From contig JAUXIQ010000185.1 of NCBI GenBank assembly GCA_030620925.1, positions 1 through 5,074 on the forward strand: DNA of 5,074 bases, in the 5' to 3' direction. Position 1 is the first letter of the stretch, and each line of letters starts with the position of its first letter. This document shows, one piece after another, positions 2 through 5,074 of this stretch. The translations under genes and the position numbers were made by a program. Below the pieces are notes generated by a model. It saw only the letters and a program-made list of their open reading frames with translations. It was not told the origin of the DNA and made no database searches. The stretch comes from JAUXIQ01 sp030620925 [NCBI: Nitrospinota bacterium]. GTDB taxonomy: Bacteria > JAUXIQ01.

Positions 2-208
2 ATCAAAGGGCTCTTCGTGCAACTGGGTGACCCGGCGATTCTGGCCCAGCAGAAATCACTGGAGCTGCTCAGAATGATGATGAGTCGCGAGGCGCTCCTT
101 TCCGCTTTCAGCGACGTTTACCTGATAGTGGGCCTGCTCATCATGGCCACCATTATACCCGCGGTTTTCCTGCGCATCAGTCCGCCGAAGTCATCGGCGG
201 TGGATTGA
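2..208 (+). CDS. MFS multidrug transporter, DHA2 (EmrB/QacA-like) type, C-terminal fragment
   Basis: This is the last 68 codons of a gene whose start lies left of the window; the frame is open from base 2 to the TGA at 206-208. A GTG at 17 is an internal valine, not a credible start. The peptide has the look of the C-terminal end of 14-helix drug:proton antiporters: an amphipathic stretch containing AQQKSLELL, then SREALLSAFSDVYLIVG leading into a final hydrophobic helix (about GLLIMATIIPAVFL) and a short polar tail. In that family the protein sits in the inner membrane and exports small molecules using the proton gradient. Only the last helix and the loop before it are visible, so family is likely but substrate is unknown. 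It converges on the dehydratase unit and is probably unrelated to it. Confidence 0.72.
   Translation: MKGLFVQLGDPAILAQQKSLELLRMMMSREALLSAFSDVYLIVGLLIMATIIPAVFLRISPPKSSAVD
182..200. other. Small GC-rich hairpin at the end of the transporter gene
   Basis: CCGCCGA at 182-188 and TCGGCGG at 194-200 form a perfect 7-bp stem with a 5-base loop. It overlaps the last codons of the transporter gene and is followed by a separate 10-base palindrome, CTCTTAAGAG, at 211-220. No T-run follows on either strand, so it does not meet the usual description of an intrinsic terminator. It may protect or stall transcripts at the convergent junction, or be chance. Confidence 0.25.
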
Positions 209-242: not shown

Positions 243-1016
243 TTATAAACCGATTTTTTTGAGGAGGTTTTCTGCGGCTGTTACGCTCGGTGAGGAGGGA
301 GGCAGGTCGATTACCGGTTCCCCTCGAAAATCGTAGGCGGTAACATTTTCATCATCAGGTATATAACCGAAAATTTCCAGCCCCAGGGAGGACGCGGCGT
401 CTTGCAGCTCCCCCTCGCGGCCCTTTACTTTGTTGATTACCAGACCTTTCTTGCCCAGCTCCAGGGCCGGGTCGTTTTTTGCGATTTCCTGGATGAGGCC
501 CGCTGTGCGGAACGCCCTGCTCGATGTGTCGGTCACCATCATGAGGACGTCTATCTTGGGGACCACGCGCCGGTTTATCTGCTCCGGCCCGGCTTCCCCG
601 TCCACCACCGTCACGTCGTATTCTTTTGACAGCGTATCGATGCCGTAGCGCAGGAGGTCGTTCACGCTGCAGAAGCAGCCCGGTCCCTCGCCCCGCCCCA
701 TCAGCAGCAGGTCGAACCCCGCTCCCCGGTGGAGGCAGCTCTTCATGCCCTCCCTGATATGCCGGCTCTCCAACTCTTTCCGCGCCGCGGGATCGTTGAT
801 GACCTCGTCGCGGATCTGCCCCACCGTCCTTTTTACCTCCACCCCCAGGGCGTGGGGAAGGCTCACCGCCGAATCGGCGTCTATGGCCAGAACGCTCTGC
901 TTCCCTTCTCCGACCAGCACCTTGACCATCAGGGCTGAGAGCACGGTCTTTCCTGTGCCCCCTTTGCCGGTAACGGCGATGACTGTGCCTTTTTTGTTTG
1001 TAGAGGTATTTTCCAT
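243..1016 (-). CDS. CooC/AcsF-family P-loop ATPase (metallocentre maturation type)
   Basis: The 257-residue cytoplasmic protein is a SIMIBI-class ATPase related to CooC, AcsF and NifH. Seen in the sequence: a deviant Walker A, GKGGTGKT, at 17-24, with the second lysine typical of the MinD/NifH/CooC group; IDAD at 45-48; the CooC-like segment GRGEGPGCFCSVNDLLR at about 107-123, with the CxC pair C114 and C116; and a Walker B-like VVDGEAG at 137-143 followed by NRR. In CooC the CxC pair binds metal at the dimer interface, and the family drives nickel insertion into CO dehydrogenase or acetyl-CoA synthase. AcsF and CooC usually read DNEAG-x-EH at the Walker B region; here it is DGEAG-P-EQ. It is the last gene of the unit, 11 bases after the upstream stop. 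No clear Shine-Dalgarno precedes the ATG, suggesting coupled translation. No upstream or in-frame alternative start looks better. The family call is firm; its client here is inferred, perhaps the adjacent dehydratase-like enzyme. Confidence 0.9.
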   Translation of the reverse strand: MENTSTNKKGTVIAVTGKGGTGKTVLSALMVKVLVGEGKQSVLAIDADSAVSLPHALGVEVKRTVGQIRDEVINDPAARKELESRHIREGMKSCLHRGAGFDLLLMGRGEGPGCFCSVNDLLRYGIDTLSKEYDVTVVDGEAGPEQINRRVVPKIDVLMMVTDTSSRAFRTAGLIQEIAKNDPALELGKKGLVINKVKGREGELQDAASSLGLEIFGYIPDDENVTAYDFRGEPVIDLPPSSPSVTAAENLLKKIGL

Positions 1017-1027
1017 TATGAGAATGT

Positions 1028-2284
1028 TCAGCCTAACAGGGTGGTAATAAAGTCTTGCAGCTGGGCCTTGATGGTATCCGACGATTTCATCCTGGGGTCT
1101 ACGAAATCGATATCGAAGATGAAGATGGGTATGCCAAGCTCATCCTGTATGTTGTCTTTCACCAGCTTGATGGTGGCCCAGGCGTGTTTGCAGGCGAAGT
1201 TACCGGCGAAAATAGCTGCATCCGCCTTGTAGTCTCTGCATATATTTATAACCATGTCAGAGTAAATCTCGTAAGGGCCGTTAGCCATGTGCCCCATAGG
1301 GGTATAGGTCAGTCTTTCGGCGAGGCCCAGAAAGATGGATTCCGTGTCGGAAACGTCTTCGATGGTGTTAGCTGAAAAGTTGCTCAATCCATCCTTAACC
1401 ACCATGGCCCCGAACTCCCTCTCCATCCATCTGAAAATACCCGTATCGAATAGGACGGGGGTGAACAGTGAAACCAGCCTTATTTTTTCTTCAGGGATGG
1501 GCCCTCTATTTTCCTCGACTGCGGCTTTACCTATTTCATACTGTTTTTTGTAGAACTCGACCAGCCCCGGGGTCCCAGACATACTGACGCATAAGCTGCC
1601 GGTTACCATCAAATGAAGTGAAGAAAGAGGACAGGGGACGTTTTTCCTGAGCTCGTTTATCTTCGCCAGGTAGCGCAAGGCTTCGTTGGAATATTCCACC
1701 ACTTCCCGCAGCCTGTCCTCGTCGAGCTTCCTGCCGGTATGCTCCTCCAGGAAGGAGACGACTTTTTTCAGCTCCCCGGCCATGTATTTGTAGCTGCGCT
1801 CGTTTTGGGTATAAGGGGTGTCGATGCAGAAATGGGGAACGTCTAAATACTCCGCAATGGTGTCGAAGGAGGCCAATCCCGAATCGCAGGGATGCGCGGC
1901 GTGCACGATGGCGTCGGGGAGGGGTAAATCTCCCGCCATTGCGGCCCCGATCATGCCTTTATTGACCCCGCATATATGGTCCGGCACGTAGCGCTGCGCA
2001 TAGTCCAGATATTTCATCAGCCCCTCCCGAGAACCCGCCAGCAAAGAGGATATTCCTTCCGGGGAAACGGGGAATATATCCATGGCATAAAATAGTTCGG
2101 GGATTGTGCCTGCGCTCATCCAGATAACCGGCTGGCCTCTATCCTTTGCGGTGTAGAGGTCTTCGTAGTATTTGGTATTCAGGTCGTAAATCCATTTATC
2201 TTCCGGCCTCTTCTCGGCAATGTGTTTATTAATGGCCTTAAAGTTTTCCGATAAATACTTAAATACATTCGTGCTCGCTTCCAT
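1028..2284 (-). CDS. 2-hydroxyacyl-CoA dehydratase / benzoyl-CoA reductase family large subunit (HgdA/HadB/BcrB-like), copy 2
   Basis: This 418-residue cytoplasmic protein belongs to the HGD-D family (HgdB/BcrC group, COG1775-like). Length fits the larger subunit of such heterodimers. Family members bind a [4Fe-4S] cluster and use very low-potential electrons to dehydrate 2-hydroxyacyl-CoA or reduce benzoyl-CoA. Cysteines matching the cluster ligands are C105 in ICGVNKG, C133 in HPCDSG and C365 in FACKHAW; the first motif resembles the CxxVK segment of BcrB. Further cysteines are C153, C218, C232 and C349. The C-terminal segment DFVDPRMKSS with AQLQDFITTLL is typical of the family's last helix region. 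It aligns without gaps to the preceding gene, about 72% identical, but carries G59 and S74 where that copy has cysteines. Start ATG at 2284 is supported by AAGGGGG seven bases upstream. A 76-base gap separates it from copy 1, larger than the other gaps in the unit. Substrate is not readable. Confidence 0.9.
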   Translation of the reverse strand: MEASTNVFKYLSENFKAINKHIAEKRPEDKWIYDLNTKYYEDLYTAKDRGQPVIWMSAGTIPELFYAMDIFPVSPEGISSLLAGSREGLMKYLDYAQRYVPDHICGVNKGMIGAAMAGDLPLPDAIVHAAHPCDSGLASFDTIAEYLDVPHFCIDTPYTQNERSYKYMAGELKKVVSFLEEHTGRKLDEDRLREVVEYSNEALRYLAKINELRKNVPCPLSSLHLMVTGSLCVSMSGTPGLVEFYKKQYEIGKAAVEENRGPIPEEKIRLVSLFTPVLFDTGIFRWMEREFGAMVVKDGLSNFSANTIEDVSDTESIFLGLAERLTYTPMGHMANGPYEIYSDMVINICRDYKADAAIFAGNFACKHAWATIKLVKDNIQDELGIPIFIFDIDFVDPRMKSSDTIKAQLQDFITTLLG

Positions 2285-2360
2285 TATTATTCCCCCTTAA
2301 TTATTAATACGAACCGCCGCCGCGTTTTGAGAAGCTGCGCTCCGTTTTTTCACCGGTTGT
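2285..2360 (-). other. Intergenic gap between the two large-subunit genes, with ribosome binding site
   Basis: This 76-base spacer is the longest gap inside the unit. On the minus strand it ends with AAGGGGG (2292-2298), seven bases before the ATG at 2284, a strong Shine-Dalgarno. An AT-rich stretch around TATTAATTATTAA lies just upstream of it and could be a poor -10 element, with TTCTCA 18 bases further up as a weak -35. I regard an internal promoter as unproven. No stem with a T-run is visible. The spacer may be what remains of the duplication that produced the second copy. Confidence 0.5.
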
Positions 2361-3617
2361 TTAGTTTAGCAGGGTGGTGATAAAGTCCGCCAACTGGGCC
2401 TTTACGGTTTCCGACGATTTCATCCTGGGGTCGACGAAGTCTAAGTCAAAAATGAATGTGGGGATACCCAGCTCGTCGTAGATTTTATCCTTTATCAGTT
2501 GGATTATTGCCCATGCGTGCTTGCAGGCGAAGTTGCCGGCGAAAATGGCTGCATCCGCTTTGTAGTCCCTGCATACCTCTATGGCCCAGTCGGAGTATAT
2601 CTCTGTAGGGCCGTGGGCCTGATGTCCCATGGGCACACTGGTTAACCTCCGGGCGAGGCCCATGAATATGGAGTCTCTGTCCGAAACGTTCTCAATGGGG
2701 TTGGCTGAGAAATGGCCCATCATATCCATGGTCACGATGGCCCCGAACTCTTTCTCCATCCAGTCGAAAATCCCCAGGTCGTAAAATATGGGGGTGTAAA
2801 TCCATGCCAGCCGTATCTTTTCATCCGGCAAGTGGCCCTTATTTTCTTCGACGGCTGTTCTGGCTATTTCGTACTGCTTTTTGAGGTATTCAATTAACCC
2901 GGGGGTTCCCGATAAATTGAAGCATGCACTGGCGTTCAGCGTTAAAAACCATGAGGAAAGGGGACAGGGGACGTTTTTCCTAAGGTCGTTTATCTTTGTT
3001 AAGTAGCGCTGGGCCTCGTTGGAGTTTTCTACCACTTCCCGCAGCTTGTCCTCATCTAGCTTCCTGCCGGTATGCTCCTCCAGGAAGGACACCATCTTTT
3101 CCAACTCCCTGGCCAGATATCGGTAGCTCCGTTCGTCTTTGTAATAAGGGGTGTCAATGCAGAACTGGGGGATATCTAAATACTCCGCAATGGTGTCGAA
3201 GGAGACCAGTCCTGAATCACAGGGATGCGCGGTGTGCACGATGGCGTCGGGCAGGGGCAAATCCCCGGCCAGGGCGGCCCCGATCATGCCCTTATTGACT
3301 CCGCACAGGTGGTCCGGCACAAAACGCTGCGCGTGGTCGAGATATTTCACTACCCCCTCTGGCAAGAGAGAAAGGACTCCGGATAAATTCTCAGTGCAAA
3401 CGGGGAAGGTATCCATGGCGTAAAATAGTTCAGGGGTAGCGCAGAAACTTCTCCAAACCACAGGCTGGCCCCTGTCTCTGGCTGTATAAAGGTCTTCATA
3501 GTATTTGGTATTCAGGTCATAAATCCATTTCTCTTCCGGCATATTCTCGGTAATTTGTTTACCAATAGCCTTAAAATAATCCGAAATATCCTCCAATATG
3601 TTGGTACTCGCTTCCAT
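2361..3617 (-). CDS. 2-hydroxyacyl-CoA dehydratase / benzoyl-CoA reductase family large subunit (HgdA/HadB/BcrB-like), copy 1
   Basis: This is the first of two tandem large-subunit genes of the HGD-D family, expected to bind one iron-sulfur cluster and to pair with the small subunit encoded just upstream. Cluster-ligand positions are C105 (LCGVNKG), C133 (HPCDSG) and C365 (FACKHAW). Unlike copy 2 it also has C59, in SFCATPELF, and C74, in FPVCTE. C59 falls near the FCSYVPEE cysteine of the small subunit. I chose the ATG at 3617, giving 418 residues, over the GTG at 3626. GAGGGG (3626-3631) sits eight bases before the ATG but touches the GTG. The copy 2 protein also starts MEASTN and is also 418 residues. 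The gene begins five bases after the small-subunit stop, so the two are probably translated together. The family assignment is secure; dehydratase versus ring reductase versus another low-potential reductase cannot be decided here. Confidence 0.9.
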   Translation of the reverse strand: MEASTNILEDISDYFKAIGKQITENMPEEKWIYDLNTKYYEDLYTARDRGQPVVWRSFCATPELFYAMDTFPVCTENLSGVLSLLPEGVVKYLDHAQRFVPDHLCGVNKGMIGAALAGDLPLPDAIVHTAHPCDSGLVSFDTIAEYLDIPQFCIDTPYYKDERSYRYLARELEKMVSFLEEHTGRKLDEDKLREVVENSNEAQRYLTKINDLRKNVPCPLSSWFLTLNASACFNLSGTPGLIEYLKKQYEIARTAVEENKGHLPDEKIRLAWIYTPIFYDLGIFDWMEKEFGAIVTMDMMGHFSANPIENVSDRDSIFMGLARRLTSVPMGHQAHGPTEIYSDWAIEVCRDYKADAAIFAGNFACKHAWAIIQLIKDKIYDELGIPTFIFDLDFVDPRMKSSETVKAQLADFITTLLN

Positions 3618-3622
3618 CGCTG

Positions 3623-4744
3623 TCACCCCTCTACCATTTCTAAAAACGCATCCAGCCTGTTTTTTATCTGGCCCGCTCCGCTCAATTGATATTCCCGCTC
3701 CAGCGTCAGGACGGGGACACTATCTTCCTCTAATTTTTTATGGATATACATCGATTCCCCGGCCCATAAATCGCAGTGGCGCATCCTCTGGTAAATCACG
3801 CCGTCCACCTTGAAACGGTCTATCATCTCCTTGATAAAACCATATATTTGAGGAATCTGCCCGGCCATCCTGGAACAGGCCGGTCGGCTCAGGTATGCTC
3901 TGGCCAGGTTGGACATGATGTCGCCGTCCGTGGCCACCGGCTCCATGGCATAACGGCTGCCGAAGCAGAGGCCGTCGGTCACCACCAGCCCCCCCGCTTC
4001 TTCGATAATCTGGGTGAACTCCAGGTCGTCGTAGGCGCTTCCAACTATCATCAGTCGCGCCCTATAGTCGGTTGAGCCCTCCTTGCCCTTTATTTCCTCT
4101 AATAAATCTTTCAACATTGAATTAAACTGTTCCTTGGGCATGGCCGTACCCGCCAGCACCACCTGCTGGGTCTCGCTGCCGGAGATGGGAGGGTTATCCC
4201 CCTCCCTCAAGCTGTACAGTTCCTGGAGAAGCGCCCGGCTTTCGTTATAGACATCGATGGAATCCTTCAGCTTCTCTTCAGTGATCTCTGTATCGAAAGA
4301 ACTTTTGAGGCTGTCGCAAAAGGTGGCTATTTCCTCGGTGAACCACTGCACTGCGTCTTCATTGATCTTGTGCGGCACGCTTAAAAAATGCATGTAGTCA
4401 CAGCCCACCTTTTCTTTCCAGATATCGTAAAGCCTGCGGATATGGTCGCAACTGTTCAAAGAGATCAACCCGTCAAGGAACTCGTATTCTCCCTTCAAAG
4501 CATATTCGAGGCAGCTTTTGACGAAAGTGCAGTTATAGGGAGACATGAGCGCGTCGGCCTCAGCCGTAGACTTGCAGCCTATGGGTCTCAGCCGGTAAGG
4601 GAGCGTTCCCGCCGCGTGAAGAACTTCTTCAGGCACGTAAGAGCAGAAATACCCGGTGATCTTCCCCCCCTTCTCTTTCCACTCTTTCGCAGCGGAATTA
4701 TAGATGGTGTCTGCGATTTCGTTTATTTCCTCGAGGGGCGCCAT
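3623..4744 (-). CDS. 2-hydroxyacyl-CoA dehydratase / benzoyl-CoA reductase family small subunit (HgdB/HadC/BcrC-like)
   Basis: The 373-residue protein matches the small subunit of HgdAB, HadBC and BcrBC-type enzymes in length and motif order. Near the N terminus is GYFCSYVPEEVLHAAGTLPYRL (30-51, containing C34), a hallmark of this subunit. Cluster-ligand candidates are C72 in NCTFVKSC, C99 in NSCDH and C324 in MRHCDLWAGE. The C terminus, LTLEREYQLSGAGQIKNRLD followed by AFLEM, is the standard family ending. Other cysteines are C57, C78, C115, C143, C260 and C290. It is the first gene of the unit. AAGGAG (4751-4756), six bases before the ATG, and an extended -10 promoter about 63 bases further up support this start. 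It differs strongly from the two large subunits, so it is a partner and not a third copy. With only one small-subunit gene for two large-subunit genes, it may be shared. Its substrate is unknown. Confidence 0.92.
   Translation of the reverse strand: MAPLEEINEIADTIYNSAAKEWKEKGGKITGYFCSYVPEEVLHAAGTLPYRLRPIGCKSTAEADALMSPYNCTFVKSCLEYALKGEYEFLDGLISLNSCDHIRRLYDIWKEKVGCDYMHFLSVPHKINEDAVQWFTEEIATFCDSLKSSFDTEITEEKLKDSIDVYNESRALLQELYSLREGDNPPISGSETQQVVLAGTAMPKEQFNSMLKDLLEEIKGKEGSTDYRARLMIVGSAYDDLEFTQIIEEAGGLVVTDGLCFGSRYAMEPVATDGDIMSNLARAYLSRPACSRMAGQIPQIYGFIKEMIDRFKVDGVIYQRMRHCDLWAGESMYIHKKLEEDSVPVLTLEREYQLSGAGQIKNRLDAFLEMVEG
3626..3631 (-). promoter_or_regulatory. Ribosome binding site that decides the copy 1 large-subunit start
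   Basis: GAGGGG on the minus strand lies within the last codons of the small-subunit gene, eight bases before the ATG at 3617. The alternative GTG at 3626 overlaps this site and has no other Shine-Dalgarno, so the ATG is favoured. Confidence 0.7.
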
Positions 4745-4813: not shown

Positions 4814-4841
4814 ACTATAGCACATTGTTGATGGTAGTCAA
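4814..4841 (-). promoter_or_regulatory. Sigma70-like promoter with extended -10, driving the four-gene unit
   Basis: On the minus strand TTGACT (4841-4836) and TATAGT (4819-4814) each match the sigma70 consensus at five of six positions and are 16 bases apart. A TG one base before the -10 makes an extended -10 element. Transcription would start near 4807, giving a leader of about 63 bases before the ATG at 4744. No comparably good promoter was seen elsewhere in the window. Confidence 0.65.
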
Positions 4842-5037: not shown

Positions 5038-5074
5038 ATGAGCACGCCTGAAAAAATGGCCAGTAAAACGGGCC
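5038..5074 (+). CDS. Start of a divergent gene, product unknown
   Basis: An ATG at 5038 opens a frame that runs to the window edge and reads MSTPEKMASKTG. It is preceded by TGAGG (5026-5030) seven bases upstream, a reasonable Shine-Dalgarno. Twelve residues are too few to name the product. Its divergent position next to the unit's promoter is where a local transcriptional regulator is often found, but nothing visible confirms that. Confidence 0.5.
   Translation, partial: MSTPEKMASKTG

What the first reader, a model, noticed from the sequence alone, without database searches (positions are those of the whole stretch)
243..4744. Dehydratase/reductase-type subunits in one unit with a CooC-type ATPase, without the usual activator
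Seen: three HGD-D family genes and a CooC/AcsF-type ATPase gene run in the same direction with gaps of 5, 76 and 11 bases behind one good promoter. Known: HgdAB, HadBC and BcrBC enzymes are normally energised by an ASKHA-fold ATPase with a [4Fe-4S] cluster (HgdC, HadI, BcrAD), often encoded next to them, while CooC-type ATPases serve nickel enzymes. Inference: this ATPase may install or remodel the metal centre of the dehydratase-like enzyme. Alternatively it may replace the ASKHA activator as an ATP-gated partner, much as the related NifH does for nitrogenase. Either would be an unusual pairing of two ATP-dependent metalloenzyme systems. The activator could simply be encoded elsewhere.
Basis: partly seen in the sequence, partly recalled or inferred. 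Interest (0 to 1): 0.72.

Follow-up and report, generated by a model that had tools for sequence, protein, structure and literature searches.

The report
CooC-type ATPase partnered with dehydratase-family reductase
A bacterial operon joins three genes for a demanding iron-sulfur enzyme of the benzoyl-CoA reductase/dehydratase family to a small ATPase of the sort that loads nickel into carbon monoxide enzymes; similar pairings occur in several other bacteria, which suggests an undescribed helper for building this enzyme's metal site.

Summary
In detail: one minus-strand operon of three HGD-D genes (one BzdN/HadC-like, two tandem HadB/BzdO-like copies, 72% identical) and a CooC-like ATPase. The operon has no ASKHA activator, but the genome encodes activators with both cysteine motifs elsewhere. 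No CdhC (acetyl-CoA synthase) or prismane (CO dehydrogenase) domain was found in the 89.5%-complete assembly, so CooC's textbook clients were not seen. The pairing recurs: six loci in six other genomes hold HGD-D, ASKHA, a small protein like the acetyl-CoA synthase A2 domain ("mini-ACS") and CooC. Their CooCs and the window's form one supported group apart from 36 others, 28 of them near acetyl-CoA synthase genes; an AU test of the window's place is not significant (p 0.15). ASKHA and CooC stand together in all six, which argues against CooC replacing the activator. Best reading: a CooC subfamily turned maturation factor for an HGD-type reductase. Cluster ligands are kept (six cysteines as in BzdN's double cubane; three in each large subunit). 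Metal and substrate are unknown; the CXC motif, mini-ACS and LarE beside two relatives hint at nickel. My searches found no paper on this pairing.

The parts
3623..4744 (-). HGDs: small HGD-D subunit, BzdN/HadC/DCCP-like (373 aa), first gene
   Evidence: PF06050 322 bits; NF040772 double_cubane 229 bits, below its 350 cut-off; BzdN E 5.8e-49; C34/72/99/260/290/324 align with the six [8Fe-9S] ligands of BzdN
2361..3626 (-). HGDb1: large HGD-D subunit, HadB/BzdO-like (421 aa from GTG 3626; ATG alternative at 3617)
   Evidence: PF06050 216 bits; HadB E 3.3e-15; C108/136/368 and E79 in the columns of HGDb2's ligand and Glu65 equivalents
1028..2284 (-). HGDb2: tandem paralogue of HGDb1 (418 aa, 72% identical, dN 0.17, dS 1.02)
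   Evidence: PF06050 223 bits; C105/133/365 align with BzdO C95/128/380; sister of HGDb1; dN, dS
243..1016 (-). CooC-type P-loop ATPase (257 aa), deviant Walker A GKGGTGKT, C114-x-C116
   Evidence: CooC 3kje E 4.9e-10; CXC and Walker A; only close match in the genome, next E 1.3e-4
4814..4841 (-). promoter-like site TTGACT-16-TATAGT with TG, about 70 bases before the first start codon
   Evidence: not above chance in number; position fits
2..208 (+). 3' end of a converging open frame (68 aa, no Pfam or NCBIfam hit at 0.001), bounds the operon

Best explanation
The operon encodes an HGD-D family (benzoyl-CoA reductase / 2-hydroxyacyl-CoA dehydratase type) enzyme of one small and one of two large subunits, with its own CooC-type ATPase. 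The ATPase belongs to a subfamily that works with HGD-type reductases instead of CODH/ACS. As in CooC, a dimer is taken to bind a metal ion or cluster part at the CXC motif and release it into the apo-enzyme when ATP binds or is hydrolysed; that is, it matures or repairs the metal site. The finished enzyme is then charged with low-potential electrons by an ASKHA activator encoded elsewhere. Shown: gene order, family, conserved cluster ligands and CXC, recurrence in other bacteria, no CdhC or prismane domain found in this assembly. Inferred: the maturation role, the client, the metal, the substrate (an acyl-CoA by family).
For: Recurrence: HGD-D + ASKHA + mini-ACS + CooC in six loci of six genomes (L125, L126, L130, L131, L150, L077), and HGDs + HGDb within 7 kb of CooC in L060. 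CooC tree of 47 ATPases: the window sits in an 11-row group (99/87 support) with these; the other 36 rows (28 near ACS genes, 8 other) lie on the other side. HGD-D gene found within 7 kb: 7 of 10 in the group (window left out), 0 of 36 outside; 5 of 8 after removing the two found through their HGD-D gene. The window's HGDb pair and HGDs fall into sets that hold most CooC-linked rows and none of the genome's own paralogues used (100/98, 21 of 38 rows; 99/96, 14 of 30 rows). CXC in 47 of 47 ATPases. No CdhC or prismane domain in the genome, with control genomes that ring. ASKHA elsewhere with both Cys motifs.
Against: BzdNO, with the same cluster set, was made in E. coli MC4100 from a plasmid described as encoding BzdNO (passages), so known clusters of this family seem not to need a dedicated CooC. 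The genome's other complete six-Cys HGDs (L018, L085, L086, L087) cannot have a CooC of their own in this assembly, though one could serve several. In L126 the module HGDs lacks two of six ligands and HGDb has His for one of three, so a double cubane is not the common client. The window lacks the mini-ACS that goes with CooC in 8 of 11 mini-ACS loci, and none was found in the genome. The AU test does not reject the window ATPase grouping with the other side (p 0.151). The exact four-gene order was seen in no other locus read.
Confidence: 0.5

Rival explanations
1. The ATPase serves another client (a nickel enzyme or mini-ACS-like protein elsewhere, or general metal handling) and rides in this operon for expression or by history.
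For: In two loci (L061, L127) CooC stands with mini-ACS and no HGD-D gene was found in the stretch, and in L082 with neither. CooC accompanies 8 of 11 mini-ACS genes, so mini-ACS may be the true client. LarE, a nickel-cofactor gene, is next to CooC in L125 and L061.
Against: No mini-ACS, CdhC or prismane domain was found in this genome, yet the ATPase gene is kept 11 bases behind an HGD-D gene; 7 of 10 group members have HGD-D nearby. The genomes of L061 and L127 hold HGDs-HGDb-ASKHA runs on other contigs (L129, L128). Other nickel enzymes were not searched for in this genome.
Confidence: 0.28
2. It is an ordinary CODH/ACS CooC displaced next to HGD-D genes; the CODH/ACS genes are in the missing part of the assembly.
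For: Completeness is 89.5% in 445 contigs. The AU test does not exclude that the window ATPase joins the other side (p 0.151).
Against: Neither CdhC nor prismane found. Starred grouping with HGD-linked CooCs. The five nearest rows are L060, L082, L125, L127 and L061, none of them near ACS genes. The linkage recurs in other families.
Confidence: 0.1
3. The ATPase replaces the ASKHA activator as ATP-gated electron donor, as NifH does for nitrogenase.
For: It is a relative of NifH (PF00142 33.9 bits, cut-off 25; TIGR01287 nifH only 18.6 of 394 bits) in an operon without an ASKHA gene.
Against: ASKHA and CooC stand in the same run in 6 of 6 related modules. The genome encodes ASKHA proteins with both motifs. 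No NifH was among its 8 PDB matches at E 0.001; the best is CooC.
Confidence: 0.06

Closest known systems
BzdNO, class I benzoyl-CoA reductase (and HadBC, DCCP)
   Same: PF06050 family; BzdN-like subunit with all six double-cubane cysteines; BzdO-like subunits with three cluster cysteines and the Glu65 equivalent
   Different: Below the NCBIfam cut-off of every BCR, HadBC and double-cubane model that matched; Gly at the place of BzdO His131 (both copies) and of Trp46 (HGDb2); two large subunits; no ASKHA genes in the operon; a CooC gene instead
CooC, nickel-inserting ATPase of CODH (and AcsF of ACS, recalled)
   Same: P-loop with deviant Walker A, CXC motif, best PDB match
   Different: Group separate from 28 CooCs near ACS genes; no CdhC or prismane domain found in the genome; neighbours are HGD-D genes
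HGD-D + ASKHA + mini-ACS + CooC runs in L125, L126, L130, L131, L150, L077
   Same: Same CooC group; HGD-D proteins in the same tree sets
   Different: Those carry an ASKHA and a mini-ACS gene; the window carries neither but a second large subunit

Membership tests
HGD-D / BCR-I / HAD family | PF06050 over gathering score | tested here: met
   three of three proteins
HGD-D / BCR-I / HAD family | Three cysteines for the large-subunit [4Fe-4S] cluster | tested here: met
   both copies; ligand numbers from PMC11971306 (passages)
Double-cubane (BzdN/DCCP) subunit | Six cysteine ligands of [8Fe-9S] | tested here: met
   CCCCCC in window HGDs; 23 of 30 HGDs rows, one more truncated. The cluster itself is not testable here
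Double-cubane (BzdN/DCCP) subunit | NCBIfam NF040772 cut-off | tested here: not met
   229 of 350 bits
Benzoyl-CoA reductase class I (Bcr/Bzd) | NCBIfam equivalog cut-off | tested here: not met
   best 174 of 454 bits for bzdN, 71 of 449 for bzdO
Benzoyl-CoA reductase class I (Bcr/Bzd) | His131 acid/base residue of BzdO | tested here: not met
   Gly in both window copies; His in 2 of 38 rows, both the genome's own paralogues
HgdAB/HadBC/Bcr systems | ASKHA activator in the operon | tested here: not met
   none among the contig's frames; in the genome on C96, C329, C75, C214
CooC | Deviant Walker A and CXC metal site | tested here: met
CooC | Linked to a CODH or ACS | tested here: not met
   no such neighbour; no PF03598 or PF03063 in the assembly
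CooC | Binds nickel, ATP-driven insertion | not testable with these tools
   needs purified protein
NifH-type ATP-gated reductase | Inter-subunit [4Fe-4S] cysteine pair | not tested
   the ATPase has C94, C114 and C116 only; no column-wise comparison with NifH made

The most novel reading that the evidence does not exclude
The HGD-CooC operons encode a branch of the BCR/HAD family whose active cluster carries, or is assembled with, a second metal such as nickel. The CooC-like ATPase (with mini-ACS, and in some lineages LarE) is its dedicated insertion system: a further nickel maturation route serving an unsuspected heterometal reductase of the Birch type.
Probability: 0.13. Interest if true: 0.88.

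Novelty: new variant of a known kind. Interest (0 to 1): 0.6.

Why it matters
How the double-cubane and [4Fe-4S]-OH2 clusters of this enzyme family are built is not explained in the passages I read ('maturation' and 'assembly' have no occurrence in the main text of PMC11971306), and CooC is known to me only as a CODH/ACS nickel chaperone. A CooC subfamily tied to HGD-type reductases would link two ATP-using metalloenzyme systems and give a concrete gene to delete or co-express. It also points to recurring partners (mini-ACS, LarE, a 202-220 aa protein) worth testing.

Tried and rejected
AlphaFold models of the ATPase alone (mean pLDDT 37.6) and of HGDb1 with a two-row alignment (32.0) are too poor to use; no fold search was run. 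The one genome-contig scan gave one locus (L032, 32% identity): one HGD-D gene beside a CoA-transferase-like gene (my reading); my reference scan found no CooC there. Plasmid searches gave one CooC-like hit, no mini-ACS and 12 records with distant HGD-D genes. Searches in the phyla of G310 (3 genomes) and G376 (1 of 50 genomes at E 1e-60) added no new module; two further CooC hits (G172:C106, G310:C199) were not looked at in context.

Considered and rejected: CooC made necessary by the double cubane (L126 lacks two ligands; BzdNO made in E. coli); the benzene 'Magic' cluster (PMC13101534: abstract, passages and section 12 seen; no such genes named there).

Errors and limits of mine: the reference called CooS_L070 is RACo; it was renamed. 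No CODH catalytic subunit was among my references, so the labels test nearness to ACS genes, not to CODH, and the 8 'other' CooCs outside the group may be CODH-linked. HGD-D neighbours were sought by likeness to the window's three proteins and only within the stretches fetched, some of them cut by contig ends. My ORF picker missed at least one CooC hit (G039:C10:6353-7081), so the tree does not hold every hit. L074, the same locus as L131, was left out of the trees. In one search one column (83) was wrongly numbered for the Glu65 equivalent; one search repeats it at 79.

Literature: (listings); passages of PMC11971306, PMC9164220, PMC13056359 and PMC13101534 (of the last also section 12). None of what I saw describes CooC with HGD-D genes or mini-ACS; most listed papers were unrelated. 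One paper search was left unused.
Full report
What is there. The 5074-base window is a whole contig (G000:C71) of a 2.5 Mb, 445-contig assembly, 89.5% complete (contig length). Four minus-strand genes form one operon: HGDs 4744-3623, HGDb1 3626-2361, HGDb2 2284-1028, ATPase 1016-243. A converging frame ends at 208 and a short diverging frame begins at 5038, so the operon appears complete. Three proteins are HGD-D (PF06050). The ATPase is closest among solved structures to CooC, with deviant Walker A and a CXC motif that aligns with CooC's.

Cluster ligands. PMC11971306 (passages) gives Cys36/73/100/263/293/327 for the [8Fe-9S] double cubane of BzdN and Cys95/128/380 for the [4Fe-4S]-OH2 of BzdO. 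By the printed alignments, counted by hand, these are C34/72/99/260/290/324 in HGDs and C105/133/365 in HGDb2; the same columns in HGDb1 hold C108/136/368. BzdO Glu65 is kept (E79 in HGDb1), His131 is Gly in both copies, and Trp46 is Gly in HGDb2. So the window enzyme keeps the cluster set but not this His, and it scores far below the BCR equivalog cut-offs. The genome has more BCR-like copies: a BcrB over its cut-off on C214, and BzdN- and BzdO-like subunits on C33 that are themselves below their cut-offs. HGDb1 and HGDb2 are a tandem pair under purifying selection (dN 0.17, dS 1.02).

Is the activator missing? In the operon yes. In the genome PF01869 rings seven times over its cut-off, on C96, C329, C75 and C214 (two more below it on C271), and these proteins keep both cysteine motifs (that these are the cluster motifs is recalled). 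CooC's usual clients are what is missing: PF03598 (ACS) and PF03063 (CODH/prismane) give no match, while 2 and 5 of 14 control genomes ring. The window ATPase is the only close one in the genome; the next hit is E 1.3e-4.

Is the pairing conserved? The ATPase matched 17 of 145 genomes, the own one included, at E 1e-15. A joined ATPase+HGDb1 query matched 32 of 386, the own one included, at 1e-40, with at most three candidates scored per genome. All listed genomes share only the domain with the window's. Around the hits a run recurs: HGDs, HGDb, ASKHA, a 244-349 aa protein, CooC. Cases are L126 (G376, single-contig genome, five genes in a row), L131 (G034, six genes overlapping or at most 9 bases apart), L125 (G310, with HGDb further upstream behind a molybdopterin oxidoreductase gene), L130 (G257, one further gene before CooC), L150 (G315) and L077 (G039). 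In L150 and L077 no separate HGDs was found; HGDb is about 600 aa there. L060 (G086) has HGDs and HGDb near CooC but with an opposite-strand gene between and no ASKHA found.

Mini-ACS. The 244-349 aa protein matches the A2 domain of acetyl-CoA synthase (15 profile hits to ACS and ACDS-beta structures, E 9e-18 to 1e-11; hhalign 97.8%), then ends in C-x2-C-x5-C. It stops before the later ACS cysteines, among them the CGC at 606-608 of the L070 AcsB (that these hold nickel is recalled). With its alignment, 35 of 386 genomes rang at E 1e-8; 11 places in 10 genomes reach 1.1e-68 or better, then comes a gap to 2.8e-22, where the matches begin to be ACS-like proteins. Ten of the 11 had served to build the alignment. 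CooC lies beside it, or one gene away, in 8 of 11, HGD-D in 9 of 11 (L139 with some 900 bases and a small opposite frame between), ASKHA in 7 of 11; in L138 the gene is cut by the contig end. The window's genome has none. In L125 and L061 the gene after CooC is LarE (347-348 bits, cut-off 150), a nickel-cofactor gene; in the other modules LarE was not looked for beyond the neighbours I scanned.

Trees. Of 47 ATPases (28 labelled as near ACS genes, 9 other, 6 HGD modules, 1 HGD nearby, 2 mini-ACS only, the window), the window lies with the 6 modules, L060, the two mini-ACS CooCs and L082 (99/87); all 28 near ACS genes are outside. A quick tree without four rows on longer branches keeps the split at 83, not starred. 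The AU test for moving the window to the other side gives p 0.151, so the window's own place is likely but not proven. In the HGDb tree the window pair is in a 21-row set (100/98) with 6 of 7 CooC-linked, 3 of 3 mini-ACS-linked and 0 of 8 of the genome's other HGDb rows. In the HGDs tree it is in a 14-row set (99/96) with 5 of 6 CooC-linked rows and 0 of 9 own paralogues. Rows were gathered by likeness to the window or by nearness to CooC, so these sets are not unbiased. HGD-D near CooC: 7 of 10 in the group against 0 of 36 outside (Fisher 2e-6), or 5 of 8 (5e-5) without the two found through HGD-D; the group was drawn after the tree was seen. CXC is present in 47 of 47.

How it most likely works. 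Shown: operon, families, ligands, recurrence. Inferred: the ATPase matures or repairs the metal site of the HGD-type enzyme, using ATP and a metal or cluster part held at CXC; an ASKHA protein from elsewhere then drives the enzyme. Replacement of the ASKHA activator is unlikely because both ATPases stand together in six of six modules. A strict need of the double cubane for CooC is unlikely too: BzdNO was made in E. coli from a plasmid described as encoding BzdNO, and one module (L126) lacks two of the six ligands. CooC as ATP-dependent nickel inserter is from PMC9164220 (passages). A survey of CODH operons (PMC13056359, passages) reports CooC mainly with CODH clades A, E and F; the words dehydratase and activase do not occur in its main text.

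Verdict. A real and recurrent pairing that my searches found in no paper (listings), best seen as a new variant of the CooC maturation theme attached to a BCR/HAD-type enzyme. The window is an aberrant member without mini-ACS and without a local activator.

Noticed in passing
L126:8898-9668, L131:10695-11429, L125:13922-14737, L130:8661-9473, L127:8278-9051, L061:8841-9650, L139:5921-6709, L150:10608-11540, L077:8452-9501, L155:6673-7776, L138:1-603: A family of small proteins made of the ACS A2 domain plus a C-x2-C-x5-C tail (mini-ACS), mostly beside HGD-D, ASKHA and CooC genes.
   Followed up: partly
L125:15621-16448; L061:7165-7983: LarE (nickel-pincer cofactor sulfur transferase) directly behind mini-ACS and CooC, followed by a histidine kinase (and in L061 a sigma54 response regulator).
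   Followed up: partly
L130:9470-10132; L138:3097-3705; L155:3624-4283: A 202-220 aa protein shared by three mini-ACS/HGD-D loci; the L130 copy has no Pfam hit at 1e-6 or NCBIfam hit at 1e-3.
   Followed up: no
L126:5535-8028: Module HGD-D subunits with cluster cysteines lost (two of six in HGDs, His for the third in HGDb) though ASKHA, mini-ACS and CooC are kept.
   Followed up: no
G000 contigs C44, C29, C33, C241, C232, C281, C302, C382, C96, C214, C118: The window's genome holds 20 HGD-D matches, three of them in the window, including another tandem large-subunit pair (C29) and a contig with HGDs-HGDb-HGDs (C44).
   Followed up: partly
L085:11502-16551: BzdNO-like genes in the window's genome lie beside a MoxR-type AAA ATPase and three genes without Pfam hit at 1e-6.
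   Followed up: no
L065:6935-7888; L083:1102-2076: ACS-like proteins of about 320 aa beside other ACS-like pieces, seemingly split ACS genes, in the same genomes as L060 and L082.
   Followed up: no
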